Positions 2,803 through 34,650 of a stretch of 64,000 nucleotides of DNA are shown in pieces. This DNA is from Utricularia gibba (Eukaryota; Streptophyta; Magnoliopsida; Lamiales; Lentibulariaceae). The notes under the pieces are model-generated. The model worked only from the letters and a program-made list of their open reading frames with translations. It was not told the DNA's origin and made no database searches. The stretch is taken from NCBI GenBank assembly GCA_002189035.1, contig NEEC01000018.1, positions 496,001 to 560,000 of the forward strand. The letters are read 5' to 3'. Made by a program: the position numbers and the translations under genes. How positions within the stretch are numbered: position 1 is the stretch's first letter; each line of letters begins with the position of its first letter.

Positions 2803-3388
2803 TCACAACCTAAGTTAGTTGAGAACGGGACAATTGACATTAGTGAAACACTTGTCACTCTATTATCTATATAAATGGCATGTAAGACTTGTGAAATTAC
2901 AGATTGATATATCTCCAACCTTTGATTGCAACATATTATTATACTCTTGCAATTGCATATTTGTTTTTTATACACTTCTTCTCTCTTGCTTACTATAATT
3001 TTAAACTCTTACAAAGTATTACCTATCGAGTTCTAATTCTGGAATGCTGATTCCAATTAGCATTTCTGTCTGGACAAAGGTTCATGGTAATTTGAACACA
3101 TGTTATCACCCCATATGCCCAAATGTTGAATTTAAAAATACATTTTCTTGTTTTTTAAAATGAAATCCAAATGCAGTATGACAATTTCAAAGTGCCAAAG
3201 ACACGATTTCATTGTCAATTGTCCGATAAAGTTAGATTCCAAAGGCTTACGAGATAAGCTCCAAGTCGAGATAGCAACAGTGAAGTATGTATAATTATTC
3301 AAATGCATGGACCGAAGTCGTGTCTAAGTTTAGGGAGAACATGTTGAATGATGTTCTAACATATTGATAGCAAGGGATTTTAATTTTC
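2803..3388. other. Spacer downstream of the NAC gene
   Basis: No coding signal. It would contain the 3' untranslated region and polyadenylation site of the minus-strand NAC gene; no clear AATAAA-type signal decides the end. Confidence 0.4.
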
Positions 3389-8608: not shown

Positions 8609-8692
8609 TAGAAAGCCCAATAAGCTTTTTGCCTCTCCCTCCCCTGGAGAGTTTCATGTTAATTGGTATTGCAGCGAAGTGAGCGGAGAAGA

Positions 8693-11624
8693 ATGATGAC
8701 AACCTTTTTCATGCGTTGGGGCCTTCTCCGGGCCGGAACCGGAACCCGAAATCGACTTGCCTCCGTCACGCATTCAGTATGCACGGCCGCGTCACCGCCG
8801 GAATTGTCTTTGAAGAATGTGACCAAGTCAAATTTCGAGCCGGCTCTCGCGGAACTGCGGCGGCACATAAGAGAAGCCGACTTCGTCGCGATCGACTTGG
8901 AGATGACCGGAGTGACCAGCGCTCCTTGGCGGGAGATATTTGTGTTTGACCGCAGCGATATCCAGTATTTGAAAATAAAAGACTCCGCCGAGAAGTTCGC
9001 CGTCATTCAGTTCGGCGTTTGTCCATTCAAATGGAATTCACAAAGCGATTGCTTTGTTGCTCATCCGTAAGTCATCTACGATAATTTCTAAATTCAGGTG
9101 TCGTAGTGGCAAATTAAAATGCTTAACTTCTCCCGTCATGTAGGTTTTTTTTTTTTTTGCTTGCTCGACTTGGTGTTCCTCAGTTATAAAACTTATGCGC
9201 TTTAGCTGTAATTAAGTTTCTTCAACCAGTAGTTAACTCTTTCTTTTTTTTCCCGGGGGGGGGGGGGGGTTTGCAATATTTTCCAGGTTCAACTTTTATA
9301 TATTCCCACGGAAAGAGCTTCCGGATCCGATTGGCAGTTCTTGCAATGAGTTTCTGTGCCAAACAAGCTCGCTGGAGTTCTTGGTCAGATACCATTTTGA
9401 TTTTAATACTTGCATTAATGAAGGTGAAGTATCCTGGAAATTGTTCTCTTGAAATGACTTGAAGAGTCATTCTTGTTGTGTTAGTAACCGTTATTTAGAA
9501 TTTTACACTATTAAATAATCTCAGGAATATCTTATTTATCCAGAAGCCAAGAGTTGGAAGCATTGGAACAGGTAGACGCTGCACACAGGGATGAGTTTTC
9601 ATCTTTGAACCTGAGAAAAGGTGAAGATGGAAAGTTAGTTAGAATGGCGGATGTTTTATTTGTCGAAAGAATGAAGATCACAATCAGAGAATGGTATTTG
9701 AGTATGAGAGTGGGATATCAAAGTTCTTCGAGTTCTATAAGTTTAATGAACTCCGTTCCTAGATTTCAGACTACCTTTTTAGGCATTCGTCCTGCCCTTG
9801 TGCTGAGTAGCATGAATTCACGTCAGCTGAGGTTGACTAAGTCGGTAATACATTTTTATACTTCTTTTGTGTCTGCAAATAACCTCATCAACAATGCTAA
9901 CGTTGCTCAGTCTGAAATCTAGTCTAGTTTTTTTTTTCTTAATAAATGTTCTCATTCTTGCTTGTGTAAATCAGGTAATTGTGAAGCATTTTCAAGATCT
10001 TTGCTATGTGGATGCCATTAGTGATACAACCTTTTCCCAACCATTGCTTGTCTACACAGAATCCGTTGCAGATAGGGATTTGTTGAATGTGAGTCTGTCC
10101 CCCCCCCCCCCCCCCCTCCCCCCCAAGTCTTGCTTCCAAGCATTTCATTTTACATCTTTGTACTTTTTTCTTGTAGAAGGAGATTAAATCATGTCGACAG
10201 CAGAAGGCTGAACAAAAAATTAAAGGTGCAGTTGGGTTCCGACATGTTATCGATCTTCTGTCTTCAGAGAGAAAGTTGATAGTTGGCCATAATTGCTTTC
10301 TTGGTATGATATTTTTCAGTGGGTCTCATTGTAGGCACTTTGTTTTGTTTGTGTTTTCTTCTCTTTCACTCAATCGTTTTTATAATTCCCTTGCTTGACT
10401 ACTGTTTTACAATTTTATGCCAGATCTTGCACACATTTACAGCAAGTTTTTTGGTCCTCTTCCTTCAACTATTGAGGAGTTTGTGACATCCCTTCAGATA
10501 CATTTCCCTTTTATAATCGACACCAAACTGCTGCTAAATTCTGATGATGCATTATTACGTATCATGAACAAAGCTGGTACTTCACTTGACAGAGCGTTTA
10601 ACTTGCTTTGTCAACCTGTTGCACCAACTGGCACAAGCAGTTTTGGAAACAAGCCAAGTCCCAAAGTGGAAATTCATGTGGATGATCTAAGGTTACATTT
10701 CCATCTACCATAGCAACATTCTTTGTTTTCACAATGTTAACTCACTGGTGTATCAGCTTGTTTTTTTCGTGGCTGCATTACGCATTTTCTTATTTACCAC
10801 TTTTGAACAATATGTGGCTTTGGATAATTTAATTCAGGTCTTCTCCACTTGCATTTCCGACGTTGTTCCTCAGTTCCACCAACTTTGTGTACTATATCCA
10901 TGACTGTTGAACATCAGGATAATGGTTTCAAACTATTGTTTTCAGGTTTTCAATCTGGAATCCAGGGACTAAGCATGAAGCAGGATACGATGCATTCATG
11001 ACAGGATGCATCTTTTCTCAAGCCTGTTATCATTTAGGGATTAATTACGGATATGGTGCAGCCCATTTTGTTCAAAATGAGAAGCTGAAAAGTTACATCA
11101 ATCGTTTATATGTCAGTTGGATAAATGGAGACATCATTAATCTGGAAACAGGGAAAACAGTTTTGTCGTCTCGAAAGCCCACCAGTTTCAAGATTGAGTT
11201 CTCCAGAATAATTATATTGTGGGGAGAAGCATCAAAGCTCCAAATGAAGGACATCAAATGTTGTTTTTCTAAAGCTTTTGGCATCGGTTCTGTTACTTCT
11301 TTCTACCATTTGGATGAAACTGCCATCCTTCTACAGTTCAGCAAGGAGGAATTCGTTGCCAAGTTCCTCCAGCTGATGGAAACCTTGCAAAGTGTGAATA
11401 ACCCTATTTCTGTTCTGCATCCTTTGACCAAAATATTTGATGGTAACCGAGTTCATGCGGGGACTTACGAGATGTATAAAGAGATATGTCAGTCACCTAT
11501 ATCGGAAGTGATGTTCTTAAACCAGGCTCAAGCGGTGTTGGCCTCAGTTCTGATTCAGAAAGTTGAAGCGGATACAACCTCTGAAGATAAATTACAGTGC
11601 TTTGAAGCACAGTTGAGCAAGTAA
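8693..11624 (+). CDS. Poly(A)-specific ribonuclease PARN-like, 672 aa
   Basis: A 3' exonuclease of the DEDDh/CAF1 family that shortens poly(A) tails; in plants a PARN of this type controls mitochondrial mRNA polyadenylation. Exons: 8693-9066, 9287-9423, 9525-9844, 9975-10088, 10177-10303, 10424-10691, 10946-11624; all introns are GT-AG and the sum is 673 codons with no break. Catalytic residues are visible: Asp68 and Glu70 in AIDLEMTG, Asp358 in GHNCFLD, His457 and Asp462 in KHEAGYDAF. The first 35 residues are rich in Arg, Ser and Thr and lack acids, fitting a mitochondrial presequence. I start at the first ATG of the tandem pair; the reading frame upstream has no ATG. Complete and apparently functional. 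Assignment to PARN versus its close plant paralogue is less certain than the family. Confidence 0.93.
9255..9269 (+). repeat. Poly-G tract in intron 1 of the PARN-like gene
   Basis: Fifteen consecutive G, preceded by a T-rich run and CCC, 17 bases before the exon 2 acceptor. Confidence 0.9.
10099..10124 (+). repeat. Poly-C tract in intron 4 of the PARN-like gene
   Basis: Eighteen C, one T, seven C, starting ten bases after the exon 4 donor. With the poly-G run in intron 1 it makes two long G/C homopolymers in one pre-mRNA. Confidence 0.9.
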
Positions 11625-19864: not shown

Positions 19865-21049
19865 CTGTTTTATTTGTTGTGCTGATTAGCTTAGCTTCCA
19901 TAGTGTTCCCTCCTATAGCATGAAATTTTTTCATGGGACGCACTCAATCAATATGGACTTTAAGGTTGCAATATGCATAGGAAGAGGTAGGATGCCAGAA
20001 GCATATGGATGACTGATAGTTGCTATTCTTGCAAAAGGGGCAGACTGCATGATTGTTCATCTTGTTTGCGTTGGTAAGCTATAGAATAAGTTTCTTGTGT
20101 AGGTTTTATTGAGTCAGTGTCCCTTCCTTAACTTCGAGAGGGTAAGTAATTTTGAGTCATATTTAACATTCTTTTAAAGATTTCATATTATCTCACTATT
20201 TAGCCTCCTCTTCTAATTCACTTAGGTGTTCCAACAATTTTTTTTGAAAGATATAGAGTATATCACTATAACTCAAAGTGTAGTGACAATTGGTACTTAA
20301 GTGTGTCGTGGAGAGCTAAGGATGTTGGACTTGACTAGTCTATTGTCCATAGTTTTTTCCAGAGTCCGTAACTCAGTAACATCCTTGGTTAATATATAAA
20401 AAAATTGTAAGTTAGTTATACGTGGTGCAAATTTTAAGTTGTAAAAGAGTTTCAATTATCTCTGAATGCGATTTTTTCGAACTTCTGTATTTTCCTCATA
20501 GAGTTTATCTAGTTTTAACAAGATTTCTCTAGGGTTCTTTATATTCATGATTATGGTAAATAATTATTCAGACAAGAGTTGATCCAAACTATACTTGGCC
20601 TCTTTGATTTGAGAATCATTGACCTTATTTGAGTGTGATGGCTCTATGGTAGGTGGAGATGTACAAGTAGAATCCACTAACATACAGATGTCGTTCATAT
20701 GCAAGTACCCCTCCATCCGGACGATCTAAGAAGCATTACTTTGTTCATTAAATATTGGAGGGGATTGTTATAGGGTGGTCATAGTTTCCAGCACATTGAA
20801 GATTTGAGAAGTGAAGTGAGGAAGAGTATAATGAGGGCGGAGTAAAACTATGAAGGTAGTATTCACGTCGGGTTCACCATGATAGACAATACTTTGTATG
20901 AGTTTGAAGTTGTAGTGAGAAAGAGGGAAGAAGTGTATCGAAAGCATATATGTAATTTTAGGAGAATAAAAATATGTTGCAATCAAAGTTTGAAGATGTA
21001 TTAATTTACAGTTTCACAAGTCGTATAGGCCATTTATATAGATAATAAA

Positions 21050-27996: not shown

Positions 27997-28705
27997 TCAG
28001 GAGAAATTAACGAAGTTCTTCTCCTTGAGGCTGTCAACAGTTTCCTTGATTCCCTGCTCAAGTGGGGTGAATTCAACTCCGAGGGATAATGCTCTTTGTT
28101 TTGAAACCTGGTAATTTGGCACCAAGGGCTGGCCCTCGTCGGTGCATCTGTCGAAGGCAGTTCCCAAAAGACAAACAAACACATGAACTCATGACAGCGA
28201 AGGCAATGCCACTCTCTAGCTACTACTAGGAGCGAATTTCAGAAGCTCACTTTTCAGCAAGTCTCAGAGAAGGATAGTTGTGGGATATTATTTTCACGAT
28301 CTCGGACATGTGAGCCACCCTATCCACTAAGCAGTATCTTCCACTGGCACAAGGATTCTCCAAGGCTAGAATATGAGCATTTGCAACGTCCTTAACATTC
28401 ACCCACCCAAAAGTAGAATTTGGGTATGTATCTGCACCTGCTTATGCAAACAAAGATCAAGATTTCCTTATAAAATATTGAAAAGTCGAGAACGAGGGGG
28501 TATTGTAGGGTTTCATTAGTATTTCCGATCATGAACTCTAGAAAGCCAACCGATCAAGTTCAATATTGCGGCAGAACTCGTGTTTAGAGAAGGCTGCAGC
28601 ATTGGACCGATGACCATCCGGGGGTTTATAGCAACCAAGCCAATGCTCTTTTCCTTTGCAAGTTTCCATGCAGCTTCTTCAGCAAGTGTCTTTGAAAGCA
28701 CATAC

Positions 28706-28923
28706 TAAACAAGTAAATAAAGAATCGCGAGAGGAAGATGAGCACAGTAAAATATTTCCGTAAAAAATCAGCTCTATGCATAAAAAAAAACAGCAGTCTA
28801 CAAAGCTTATTTCAAGAAGACTAAAAACCAAAACACACGCAAAGAATGTGGGTATCCCACACGAAACCTCCTCTGCACATCAGCAGGTTTAGCCCAGCTA
28901 TTTCATAATAACGTTCCTCTTTA
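28706..28923 (-). repeat. 3' LTR of the copia element in the CCR-like gene
   Basis: 218 bp; pairs with 33517-33746. Lacks the 12-bp 'gcttttctgcac' block present in the other LTR. Confidence 0.95.
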
Positions 28924-28949
28924 CTCCCTCCTCAAGCTGGGGAGGACAA

Positions 28950-31900
28950 GGTCGTAGCCCAAGCTTGCCGATGATAGTAAAAAACGGTAGAGAATCTAAT
29001 GCCTTAGTGAAGACATCAGCAAGTTGCTGTTTAGAAGGCGTGTAGATGGGTAAAAGAAATCCAAGCTTGAATTGATCCCGAACGACGTGGCAATCGATTT
29101 CTATGTGCTTCGTCCGTTCGTGGAAAACAGGATTTGCGGTAATGTGAATTGCAGACTGGTTATCACAGTGCAAGGGAATAGGGAGAACGAAAGGTTCACC
29201 AAGTGACTGCAAGAGATAAGAGATCCACAAAAGTTCCAAAGTAGTAACCCCATGCTGTGATACTCCGCCTCTGCGGAGGAGCGGGAGACCAAGCTTTGTT
29301 TCTTGGTCTTCCAGGAGATTAGACATCCACCAAAGAAGATGCAAAAACTTGTAACAGAGTGCCGAGTTGTAACACATGCTCCCCAATCAGCATCACAATA
29401 AGCAGTGAGAGAGGAGGGGGAGCCATAAGGATATAGAAGGCCCATGTCAATTGAACCAGAAAGATAACTCAATAAGCGTTTCAGAGCGATCCAATATTCA
29501 GACCCCGGACAATGAACATACTGAGATAGCTGCTGCACCACAAAGGTAAGATCAAGCCTTGTAAAATTCAAGTAAAGTAGTCGGCCGACTAACCCACGAT
29601 ATTTCTCAACACAGATGGGATTAGAAACGGTATTGGCCAAGAACTTAAAACTCCATGGCATGGGAGTGACCACACGAGGAGATAAATCAGCACTCAAAGG
29701 CTGAAGAATATCTGAAATATACCGTCGCTAAGATAAGAAAAGCCCATTAGCAGTTCGTGTGAGCTCAATCCCTAAGAAAAAAGTAGCGTCGCCAAGATCC
29801 TTGATAGTGAATTTGGCATGCAGATCTGTTTTAAGCTGGGTAATGGCATCCAAGGATGAGCCCCTAAGAAGGATGTCATCCACTTAAATCAGAACGACGA
29901 GAACAGATATCGCATCCCGCCACACAAATAGGCAAGTGTCCGAGGGGCATTGAGAGAAACCCAAGCTTACCAGAAATCGACTAATTTCAAGGTTCCACTG
30001 ACGCGAGGCTTGCTTAAGCCCGTATAAGGATTTACGCAGCAGGCAGACGTCTCCCTCCTTGCACCCATATCCTTCTGGAGGGTGCATTTAGATCTCTTTG
30101 TCCAGGAATCCATGAAGGAAGGCGTTGTTAACATCAATTTGATGCAGAAACCATGAATGCTTCGCAGTAAGTGCCAACAACAAGCGAATGGAAGTAGCCT
30201 TAGCAACCGGTGCAAAGCTGTCATGGTAATCCACCCCTTCCACTTGTGTGTAACCTTTGGCTACCAAGCATGCCTTGAACCGATCAAGACGCCCATCAGA
30301 TAATCGCTTGATTTTGTAAACCCATTTGCAACCGATGGCACGCTTACCCTTTGGCAAAGGAACAACCCTCCATGTTTCGTTGTGCTCAAGAGCCTTAATC
30401 TCTTGAGACATAGCATCACACCAGTGGGGGAATCGTGATGCCTCTCTATATGTGCGAGGTTCAGAAAGGAGACACGGCTCTTCAGGGTCTCCCGCATCAA
30501 CCTGAAAAATGTGGTAGTCACGCAACCAGTCAGGTGAGATATGGCTCCTTTGACTTCGCCTAAGTCTCGGATCAGGAGAAGGCACCAAACACGGCGAGGA
30601 GTGGTGTGTCCCACCGGACAGAGGGGGAGCATGTGTATTAATGATGGGGTGCTCTGAATGATTAGACCCGTCAGGGAGAGAAGCATCAAGCACATCGCTA
30701 GGTGCATCCCTCATAGCATCATGCATACTAGATAGGGACTCAGGCGGCATAGCAGCAACTGGGACCTCTGGGTCATCATTATCAGGAAACACTAATGGCA
30801 ATAAAACATCATGAGAGTCCAGATCGTGAATAACACTCTTCATCGGAAATACTCCTTCATAAAATTTGATGTCGCGAGAAATGAACATTGTATGCGTCTC
30901 CAGATCATAGAGCTTATACCCCTTATGATCCATGGGGTATCCGATGAAAATGCATTTGCGTGCCCAACAAGCTTATCGCCCCGAGAATCCAAATTTGCTG
31001 CAAAAGCCAAACAACCAAATATCCACATATGAGCTAGTGCTAGGGGTTGGTGCATAAGAACTTCAAAAGGAGTCGCCCAATCAAGCACGGAGGATGGCAT
31101 GCGATTTATAATGTAAGTTGCAGTGAGAAGAGCTTCACCCCAAAAATTCTTCGGTACCCCTGATTGAAACATTAATGCTCGCGTAACCTCCAAGAGGTGG
31201 CGATGCTTCCGTTCAACTCTGGCGTTCTGCTGTGGCCGCTAAGTGCATGAATATTGATGGCAAATCCCCTTCTCACAAATTCTGCAAGGCAGAGCTCATA
31301 AACTCTCCTCCTTTATCCGTGCGAAGATGCTTAGTAGTTAGGCGAAAATGATTTTCTGCATACGCAAGAAAGGCTTGTATGTAACTGCCAATCCCATCTT
31401 ATCGCACAATAAGAAAGTCCATGTAGTGCGGGTATGATCATCCACAATGGTGAGGAAGTATCGCATTCCATTAAAGGTGGTAAGTTCATACGGCCCCCAT
31501 AAATCACAGTGGAGCAGGTGGAACGCATGTGGCGCACGGGAAGTGCTCAAAGGGAAGGGGACTTTCTGAAATTGAGCATATTCGCAGACATCACAAGGAA
31601 CACCAGATAAGCCACATGGAACATGCATATACTGAGATTTAGAATTTGAAATGTGCCCAAGGCGGCAGTGCCATAGAAGACGTTTATCACCACTATGCAA
31701 GGCATCAACAAAGAAACACATAGAAGGTAATACCACATTAACAAGACTATTGCGGATAACAGGTTTGTGGGCTACTGCAGCATATGCCGAAATTACACTT
31801 GATTGGAACGACCTCTTGTCCACCACATAGAGGCCATCTCGCACACGACCAACCCCTAGGACCTCATGGGTATCCGGGTCTTGCAGCAAGCAATGGTGAC

Positions 31901-32468
31901 TAGAAAACACAACATTGATTCCAACATCATCTGCAAGCCTCTTGACAGATAGCAAGTTGTACTTAAAACCAGGCAAATACAGGACATTCTGTAGTTTAAT
32001 CCGCCTAGTTAATGGTATGCTACCCATATGACTCACCAGGACAAACTGTCCATTAGGTAGAGTCACTTGTAAGTGAGCTACCTGCTTCATGCCCTCAAAA
32101 CTGATGGTGGAACAACTAATATGGGTAGTGGCTCCAGAATCAATAATCCACTCACATGGGTTACATACAAAGCATGCAGATGCAGTGTTCATGAATCCTA
32201 ACACCATGGGTGACGTACCTGAGAATTCCAGTTTGGACAGATTGATTGATGGAGAAGATGGCATGTGACCTCCAGGGTTTTCCCTTGAGGTAGAAGGTGG
32301 AATGCTACCCATCAACTTTGTCAATTCTCGCTGAATGACCTGTAAAGGATCAGTGGAGTATGAGATATTAGAAGCGTATGAGAGAGACTCATCCAAAGGG
32401 GTCTCAACACAATGCACAGCAGGTCGATAAGAATTATAAGACACAGGCTGACGAGGTGCCAACGGCAC
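28950..32468 (-). pseudogene. pol of the copia element (protease, integrase, reverse transcriptase, RNase H), broken
   Basis: Fragments in several frames: protease WIIDSGATTHIS (Asp codon near 32140); pre-integrase LLWHCRLGHIS and CDVCEYAQ; integrase HCDLWGPYE with FLTIVDDHTRTTW, frame lost near 31340 and regained at 31193 (NFWGEALLTATYIINRMPS); reverse transcriptase NETWRVVPLPKGKRAIGCKWV, VDYHDSFAPVAK, DVNNAFLHG; RNase H YCDADWGACVTTRHS and SWKTKKQSLVSRSSAEAEYH, then HCDNQSAIHIT and RTKHIEIDCH in another frame. Three point stops are clear: TAA at 30090-30088 in place of Tyr of the EIYMHPPEGY motif, TAA at 29886-29884 in place of Tyr of the catalytic YVDD box, and TAG near 29728 after GLFLS. 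No functional polymerase can be made. Confidence 0.9.
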
Positions 32469-32641
32469 TTGTTGATACTGATTCCAAGGGGGCGAGACTG
32501 CTCATAATGAGGTGATTGTGATTTCACATCTTGGGAATCATATTTACCCCCTTTTTTGCGCCACCAAGGGGAGGTTCTTTGACCGTGAAGCAATTGTCAG
32601 ATAGATGACCCTGCTTATTACAAATGGTACAGAACCTGTTA

Positions 32642-33466
32642 TCACGACGCTGTCCCAGGGTTGGGCTCTCGAATGGACTTAATCATCATGGCTGAGTTGG
32701 TGTGGATATTCACCACCTCAGATGTCCTTCGACACATCTGTTGCTCAACATTCAAGAGGGCCCCATATGCCTTGGACACTGTCATGGATTCATCCATGGC
32801 TAGTATCTGATTACGAATCCCATCAAATTTCGGGTGGAGACCCAGCAGAAATTGAGTGAGCTTAGTTGATCCAAAGAATCTGTCGGCATTTACTGGTATA
32901 TTGCACTTATGACATTTAACCTCTGGAAACAGAGCATCTAATTCTTTCCATAGAGCATTTAATTTGGTATAATAATGTGCGATACTCATATCGCCTTGTT
33001 TCAAGGAGTATAATTCAGACTGAATGTGGTATAGCATGTTACTATTAACCTGGCCATAGTGCGCTTCCAAAGTCTTCCATAACTCGTGCGAACTAGAGCA
33101 CCTAGTGAAACTTCCCACCAAATCCTTTGAGACAGAATTTAGGATCCAAGACATGAGCATATAATCATTTTGGAGCCAAAGACCATAGGAAGGGTCGGTG
33201 ATCGAAGGCTTGGGCACCTCGCCAAGAATGAAGCCAAGTTTATTTTTAGCTCCCAGGGCAAGGCGGACTCCTCGTCGCCAATCGAAATAATTCTGTGTAT
33301 TCAGAAGTTCGCTTACGAGGGAATCATTCAGATGGTCGGAGCCACTAAGGTGTAGTGGGTCCGCACGATCCAAATCGCCATCTGTGAATGCTGCTACCAT
33401 CGAAGTTCGTCCAGAGCGCAGTGGTTCTTCAGAGGATCGATCAGTCGTCGTAGCAAAGGTTGACAT
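32642..33466 (-). pseudogene. gag of the copia element
   Basis: Starts MSTFATTTDRSSEE. Contains the retroelement Gag signature: LVSELLNTQNYFDWRRGVRLAL, GAKNKLGFILGEVPKP, LWKTLEAHYGQ, LYSLKQGDMSIAHYY and KLTQFLLGLHPKFDGIRNQIL. Structural capsid protein. A stop follows PGTAS; the CCHC zinc knuckle (CTICNKQGHLSDNC, 32631-32590) lies just beyond in another frame, so gag is separated from it by a frameshift. Confidence 0.88.
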
Positions 33467-33516
33467 GATGAGATGCGAGCTGGTAGATGCGCGATTCCTC
33501 CACACTCACCGCACCA

Positions 33517-33746
33517 TAAACAAGTAAATAAAGAATCGCGAGAGGAAGATGAGTGCAGTAAAATATTTCCGTAAAAAATCAGCTCTATGCATAAAAAAAA
33601 ACAACAGTCTACAAGGCTTATTTCAAGAAGACTAAAAACCAAAAGACATGCAAAGAACGTGGGTATTCCACACGAAACCTCCTCTGCACGCTTTTCTGCA
33701 CATCAGCAGGTTTAGCCCAGCTATTTCATAATAACGTTCCTCTTTA
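33517..33746 (-). repeat. 5' LTR of the copia element in the CCR-like gene
   Basis: 230 bp; the extra 12 bp near 33690 is a local duplication around 'ctgcac'. Its outer end abuts the GTATG target copy. Confidence 0.95.
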
Positions 33747-34650
33747 CATACCATTGCTGAAGGTTTAAAATTCAGCATGTGGAGGGATTAGGACATAAAG
33801 ATGTTTTTTTAAAGGGAAATAAGAAAAAAAAAACAGGCCATCAACCTGCTGTTTTCTGCCAAGTTCTGGATCAGACCACCAAGTTTCATCGACTACTACA
33901 TCAGGCGTTCGAGGTTTATGATTACAAGCCACAGCAGCTATAGAGGATGTCAGCACATCCCTTTTGATAGAGGGTACTTTCGCACAGGATGCAAGAACAT
34001 TGAGAGTCCCCATAACTGCAGGATCAATCAGTTCAGCCTAAAAAATTCCATCAAATAAACTGTCTCAGCCCGGTGCATTGGATGTTCCAGCTGTATCATT
34101 AGACATCAATCCAACTACATCAGCATGATCAAAGCAACCAGACAGAATCTATTATCTTAAATGTGTAAACTGTTAGCTGCGCAGAGTAATGTTTCGAGGG
34201 TCTCAAAATCAATATTTTATGGTAGTTTCTATGAATAAAAAAGGAAACATATGAAAAAGACCTGTGGATCAGTGACACCATAGTAGAAGGGAGAAGCATT
34301 ATGGAAAACACAATCACAACCTTGAACAATCTCGTCGAAGGACCCCTCTTCCAGCAAATTTGCCTTCAAAAATTTAAGTCCTTCCTTGGCTCCATGAAGG
34401 GAGTTTAAATGTTGAGTTTTCTTAGGATCATTTGCAAAATTGAAACAACAGTAGAATAAAAAAAGAGAGATAACTACTACAATCATCCGTTAGTCCTCCC
34501 ATAAATTGAAACAGTATATAATATGACTTACTGGGATCACAAACAGATGCCTTGACGAGGTAGCCACGGTGAAGCAAGCATTTGACAAGCCAGGAGGCTA
34601 CGTAGCCTGATCCACCGGTGACACACAGTTCTCGCCGGCGCCCACATTCT

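What the first reader, a model, noticed from the sequence alone, without database searches (positions are those of the whole stretch)
28701..33751. Clean copia insertion into a CCR-like coding exon with TAAA...TTTA LTR ends
The target duplication GTATG lies within the exon encoding QWYVLSK, so the pre-insertion exon can be read across the site. The LTRs end TAAA/TTTA rather than TG/CA. LTRs beginning TA and ending TA are a recognised but small minority class in plants, mostly in copia. A datable insertion (about 3.7 percent LTR divergence) in a lignin-pathway-like gene is a useful polymorphism candidate.
Basis: partly seen in the sequence, partly recalled or inferred. Interest (0 to 1): 0.65.

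Follow-up and report, generated by a model that had tools for sequence, protein, structure and literature searches.

The report
Copia retrotransposon inside a reductase gene
A decayed Ty1/copia retrotransposon with unusual TA...TA ends sits cleanly inside an exon of a plant reductase gene copy that carries other damage too; this is mostly ordinary, but its relatives in the same genome show a tRNA-Phe primer site and ends ranging from TG...CA to TA...TA.

Summary
A minus-strand Ty1/copia element occupies 28706-33746, with LTRs of 218 and 230 bp beginning TAAA and ending TTTA, flanked by CATAC/CATAC (GTATG on the gene strand). A genomic paralog reads through the site uninterrupted. A second copy elsewhere has its outer boundary at exactly the same TAAA.

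Three corrections. (1) The host is CCR-like only at superfamily level: it carries WYVLSK, not CCR's WYCYGK, and its best solved match is a different SDR reductase. It also shows an exon-1 frame loss and a destroyed exon-2 acceptor, so the insertion is not the only lesion. (2) No empty allele is in the genome held, which may be incomplete. (3) The TA...TA class is already catalogued.

New detail: the primer site matches the genome's own tRNA-Phe (17/18), whereas a published survey finds tRNA-Met in plant copia lineages that use whole tRNAs. About 16 other gag-bearing elements share this site. Within the window's gag clade, TSD-defined ends are TA...TA, TG...TA and TG...CA. That is a small natural series for integrase-end evolution; otherwise the finding is ordinary.

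The parts
28701..28705 (.). target-site duplication CATAC, left copy
28706..28923 (-). 3' LTR, 218 bp, TAAA...TTTA, lacks 12 bp present in the other LTR and in the C244 copy
28924..28933 (-). polypurine tract GAGGAGGGAG directly upstream of the 3' LTR
   Evidence: the same type of tract lies at other 3' LTRs
28898..29386 (-). RNase H-like open stretch (residues ...CDNQSAIHIT...ADVFTKAL...); no Pfam hit, recognised by eye only
29884..30087 (-). reverse transcriptase fragment (RVT_2, profile 98-164)
30088..30972 (-). open stretch with SH3_retrovirus and the N-terminal half of RVT_2
31338..32501 (-). open stretch with Pol_BBD and, below its cut-off, GAG-pre-integrase
32642..33505 (-). gag open stretch (Retrotran_gag_3, Retrotran_gag_2), 287 codons stop to stop
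33499..33516 (-). primer-binding site TGGTGCGGTGAGTGTGGA, 17/18 complementary to the 3' end of the genome's own tRNA-Phe(GAA)
33517..33746 (-). 5' LTR, 230 bp, TAAA...TTTA
33747..33751 (.). target-site duplication CATAC, right copy
28551..28705 (-). host exon 4, part after the insertion (ends ...AACTTGATCG, donor gttggc)
33752..33756 (-). host exon 4, first 5 bases (CAATG) before the duplicated GTATG
34262..34431 (-). host exon 2 with destroyed splice acceptor (AA instead of AG)
34532..34647 (-). host exon 1, reading frame lost between the ATG and the conserved VTGGSGY motif

Best explanation
It is an ordinary integration of a Ty1/copia LTR retrotransposon. An RNA copy was reverse transcribed from a tRNA-Phe primer, and the element-encoded integrase joined a DNA whose ends read TA...TA to a staggered 5-bp cut in exon 4 of a short-chain reductase gene copy, duplicating GTATG. 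The integrase of this lineage accepts TA as well as TG/CA ends, because close relatives with TG...TA and TG...CA ends made equally clean 5-bp duplications. The element has since decayed (pol broken in several places), and the host copy carries at least two further lesions. Shown: anatomy, duplication, uninterrupted paralog, primer match, ends in relatives. Inferred: priming by tRNA-Phe, tolerance of the integrase, order of events.
For: Boundaries and duplication. Uninterrupted paralogs. Copia gag, Pol_BBD, SH3_retrovirus and RVT_2 in copia order. Second copy at C244:1898884, 96-97% identical over most of pol, whose host homology to two tandem paralogs runs exactly to the base before TAAA. TA...TA with TSDs GTCTT (L037) and GTAGC (L036); TG...TA with TSD GATTG (L034); TG...CA with TSD ACACG (L040). 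Primer site versus tRNA-Phe found by ARAGORN. LTR differences fall on both LTRs when polarised with C244 (3 against 4, 1 ambiguous), as expected for changes after insertion.
Against: Only one complete copy of this exact family is in the genome held; the C244 copy lacks its right side. One of the four terminal positions in L036 (3' LTR start) reads G instead of T. No second haplotype or other accession was available. Priming and integrase tolerance were not tested.
Confidence: 0.93

Rival explanations
1. The TA...TA ends are a boundary-reading artefact: the true ends are TG...CA a few bases away, or the TA comes from decay (C-to-T) in one old copy.
For: The element is decayed and 7 of 8 LTR differences are transitions, so single-base decay at the ends is conceivable.
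Against: Both LTRs have both ends TA, the C244 copy has its outer boundary at the same TAAA, and L036/L037 (L037 LTRs 99.6% identical) show TA...TA with exact duplications.
Confidence: 0.03
2. The host copy was already a pseudogene when the element landed, so the insertion had no functional effect.
For: Exon 1 has lost the frame from its ATG to the VTGGSGY motif, with no in-frame upstream ATG; the exon-2 acceptor is AA.
Against: Exons 2-6 have no internal stop, and dN/dS against the C98 paralog is 0.19 at dS 0.52, so constraint lasted until recently; the lesions could equally follow the insertion. An error in the assembly is not excluded.
Confidence: 0.45
3. The insertion disrupted a working lignin-pathway CCR and is a segregating knockout.
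For: The exon is open on both sides and the site lies in the catalytic W-Y-x-x-x-K region.
Against: Motif WYVLSK, nearest solved relative 4qtz/4quk (169 and 167 bits) well ahead of true CCRs (98 bits, WYCYGK); additional lesions; no empty allele found.
Confidence: 0.05

Closest known systems
TARE1 (tomato, Ty1/copia, TA...CA; PMC3701649)
   Same: Short-LTR copia with TA at the LTR start, 5-bp duplications, attributed to a G-to-A change followed by amplification
   Different: TARE1 keeps CA at the 3' end, has the published PBS TGGTATCAAGAA and 354 copies; here both ends are TA, the primer site is tRNA-Phe, and few copies were found
AcCOPIA1 (onion, TG...TA; cited in PMC5659011)
   Same: TA at the 3' end, as in L034 and the window element
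   Different: Different host; only one end is changed there
LTR_retriever motif class TATA (list quoted in PMC8220671)
   Same: LTR begins TA and ends TA
   Different: A software category, not a family
Ty1/copia lineages of REXdb, including the club-moss group Lyco (PMC6317226)
   Same: Copia-type gag and pol, 5-bp duplication
   Different: That survey reports tRNA-Met as the variant found in all copia lineages using complete tRNAs; the site here is tRNA-Phe. Lineage membership could not be tested

Membership tests
Ty1/copia LTR retrotransposon | copia-type gag and RVT_2, with integrase-side domains before RT | tested here: met
   Retrotran_gag_3/2, Pol_BBD, SH3_retrovirus, RVT_2 in this order on the minus strand
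Ty1/copia LTR retrotransposon | two LTRs, PBS, PPT, 5-bp target duplication | tested here: met
Ty1/copia LTR retrotransposon | intact integrase catalytic domain | tested here: not met
   no rve domain hit in any open stretch; pol is broken in several places. Decay of this copy, not absence from the family
Non-canonical TA...TA class | both LTRs begin TA and end TA, duplication directly outside | tested here: met
Copia lineages primed by tRNA-Met | PBS complementary to the 3' end of tRNA-Met | tested here: not met
   PBS matches tRNA-Phe(GAA) 17/18
REXdb Lyco or other named copia lineage | placement in the RT/RH/INT tree | not testable with these tools
   REXdb sequences not held; supplements not readable
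Cinnamoyl-CoA reductase (host gene) | WYCYGK catalytic motif | tested here: not met
   host has WYVLSK; two PDB chains named CCR have WYCYGK

The most novel reading that the evidence does not exclude
A tRNA-Phe-primed copia lineage in this genome has moved from TG...CA to TA...TA ends through forms with one changed end (TG...TA), with all states still making clean 5-bp duplications. That would make it a natural series for how a copia integrase and its DNA ends evolve together.
Probability: 0.45. Interest if true: 0.45.

Novelty: new member of a known kind. Interest (0 to 1): 0.28.

Why it matters
By itself it is a routine retrotransposon insertion in a damaged reductase gene. The relatives make it more useful: one small group in one genome with TA...TA, TG...TA and TG...CA ends and an unusual tRNA-Phe primer site would allow a direct test of which integrase residues permit non-canonical ends. 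It is also a reminder that searches requiring TG...CA miss such elements.

Tried and rejected
Empty allele: flank searches gave only the window and paralogs at 70-86% identity; G000 may be incomplete, so this is not evidence of fixation. Copy count: the LTR finds only three places. Second independent origin of TA ends: the gag tree rejects one clade for all TA-ended copies (AU p about 2e-94), but in the second clade (L047, L067, the C451 copy) the LTR ends read TA, CT and AT and no duplication fixes the boundary, and L043 and L044 are single decayed copies; so I do not claim two origins. Within the window's clade a single origin is not rejected (p 0.42). L039 LTRs are too decayed to place the start. 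NCBIfam on the host gave only weak general SDR hits. No paper on tRNA-Phe-primed plant copia was found in the open library; that library is partial, so absence there is weak evidence. The LTR_retriever paper itself is not held.

Full report
Observation. The minus-strand element lies at 28706-33746 with LTRs 28706-28923 (218 bp) and 33517-33746 (230 bp), flanked by CATAC on both sides. The LTRs differ at 8 of 218 positions (K2P 0.038) and by one 12-bp indel. With the related C244 LTR as a reference, 3 changes fall on the 3' LTR, 4 on the 5' LTR, 1 is unclear, and the indel is a loss in the 3' LTR. This fits changes after insertion. An absolute age needs a rate for this lineage, which I do not have; two commonly used plant rates (from memory, 1.3e-8 and 6.5e-9 per site per year) would give about 1.5 and 2.9 million years, and the excess of transitions would make either an overestimate.

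Element. In reading order: 5' LTR, primer site, gag, Pol_BBD and pre-integrase region, SH3-like region, RVT_2, RNase H-like stretch, polypurine tract, 3' LTR. This is the copia order. gag is open for 287 codons; pol is broken into several frames and no integrase core domain is recognised, so the copy is dead. The primer site TGGTGCGGTGAGTGTGGA follows the 5' LTR directly and matches the 3' end (with CCA) of the genome's own tRNA-Phe(GAA) in 17 of 18 positions.

Ends in other copies. The LTR occurs at only three places in the 100-Mb genome held: the two here and C244:1898884. The C244 copy is 96-97% identical over most of pol but has lost its right side. It lies in a GDSL-type gene (named by eye from its translation), and two tandem paralogs show the host sequence running exactly to the base before TAAA. 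More distant relatives (66-73% in DNA) give complete boundaries: L037 TA...TA with GTCTT, L036 TA...TA with GTAGC (one 3' LTR start reads G), L034 TG...TA with GATTG, L040 TG...CA with ACACG, all in element sense. Primer-site junctions with gag downstream number about 16 beyond the window; their 3' ends read TA or CA. A gag tree places the window with the L036/L037 type, L034, L040 and L044 in one supported clade (96/98). TA-ended copies as a whole are not one clade, but the copies in the other clade have uncertain boundaries, so repeated origin is not claimed.

Host gene. Joined flanks align to an uninterrupted paralog on C98 (73% over 1.5 kb including introns) without a gap at the site. Splicing by homology gives exons 2-6 without internal stops, dN 0.10, dS 0.52, dN/dS 0.19. 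Exon 1 has lost the frame between its ATG and VTGGSGY, with no upstream in-frame ATG, and the exon-2 acceptor reads AA where the paralog has AG. The protein around the site carries WYVLSK; the best solved match is 4qtz/4quk (deposited as dihydroflavonol-4-reductase; from memory these are Medicago CAD2), ahead of CCRs with WYCYGK. It is an SDR reductase of the CCR/DFR/CAD2 group, not a bona fide CCR.

Comparison with the literature. TA...CA (TARE1, PMC3701649), TG...TA (AcCOPIA1) and other non-TGCA copia elements are known (PMC5659011), and TATA is in LTR_retriever's motif list (quoted in PMC8220671). A survey of plant elements reports tRNA-Met in all copia lineages that use whole tRNAs (PMC6317226). 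The tRNA-Phe site is thus unusual against that survey, although its supplements could not be read and lineage Lyco (club-mosses) could not be compared.

Limits. I suspect a Selaginella from genome size and compact introns, but this was not tested. Counts of repeats are lower bounds.

Verdict. The lignin-gene reading is weakened. The mixed ends and the tRNA-Phe site in relatives are the part worth a follow-up.

Noticed in passing
L011 5385 onwards (C244:1898884), L014: Second copy of the element sits in a GDSL-lipase-like gene exon amid tandem copies of that gene; its right part is missing, and unrelated DNA of about 370 bp lies inside pol (joined coordinates about 8674-9040).
   Followed up: partly
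window 33499-33516; L042-L048, L050, L055, L059, L062, L063, L066, L067, L069-L071: Many copia elements of this genome carry a primer site complementary to tRNA-Phe.
   Followed up: partly
L034 1950-6864: Related element with asymmetric ends TG...TA and 5-bp duplication GATTG; LTRs 92% identical.
   Followed up: yes
L037 3163-8775: Related TA...TA element with LTRs 99.6% identical (245 bp), i.e. a very recent insertion.
   Followed up: partly
window 2861-3027 and 20881-21047: 167-nt inverted repeat, 82% complementary, 17.9 kb apart; not identified.
   Followed up: no
C317:1481453 and about 35 other places matching the DNA upstream of the L066 5' LTR: A roughly 198-bp repeat family at 89-95% identity, many copies in the genome held; seen because it flanks L066.
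   Followed up: no
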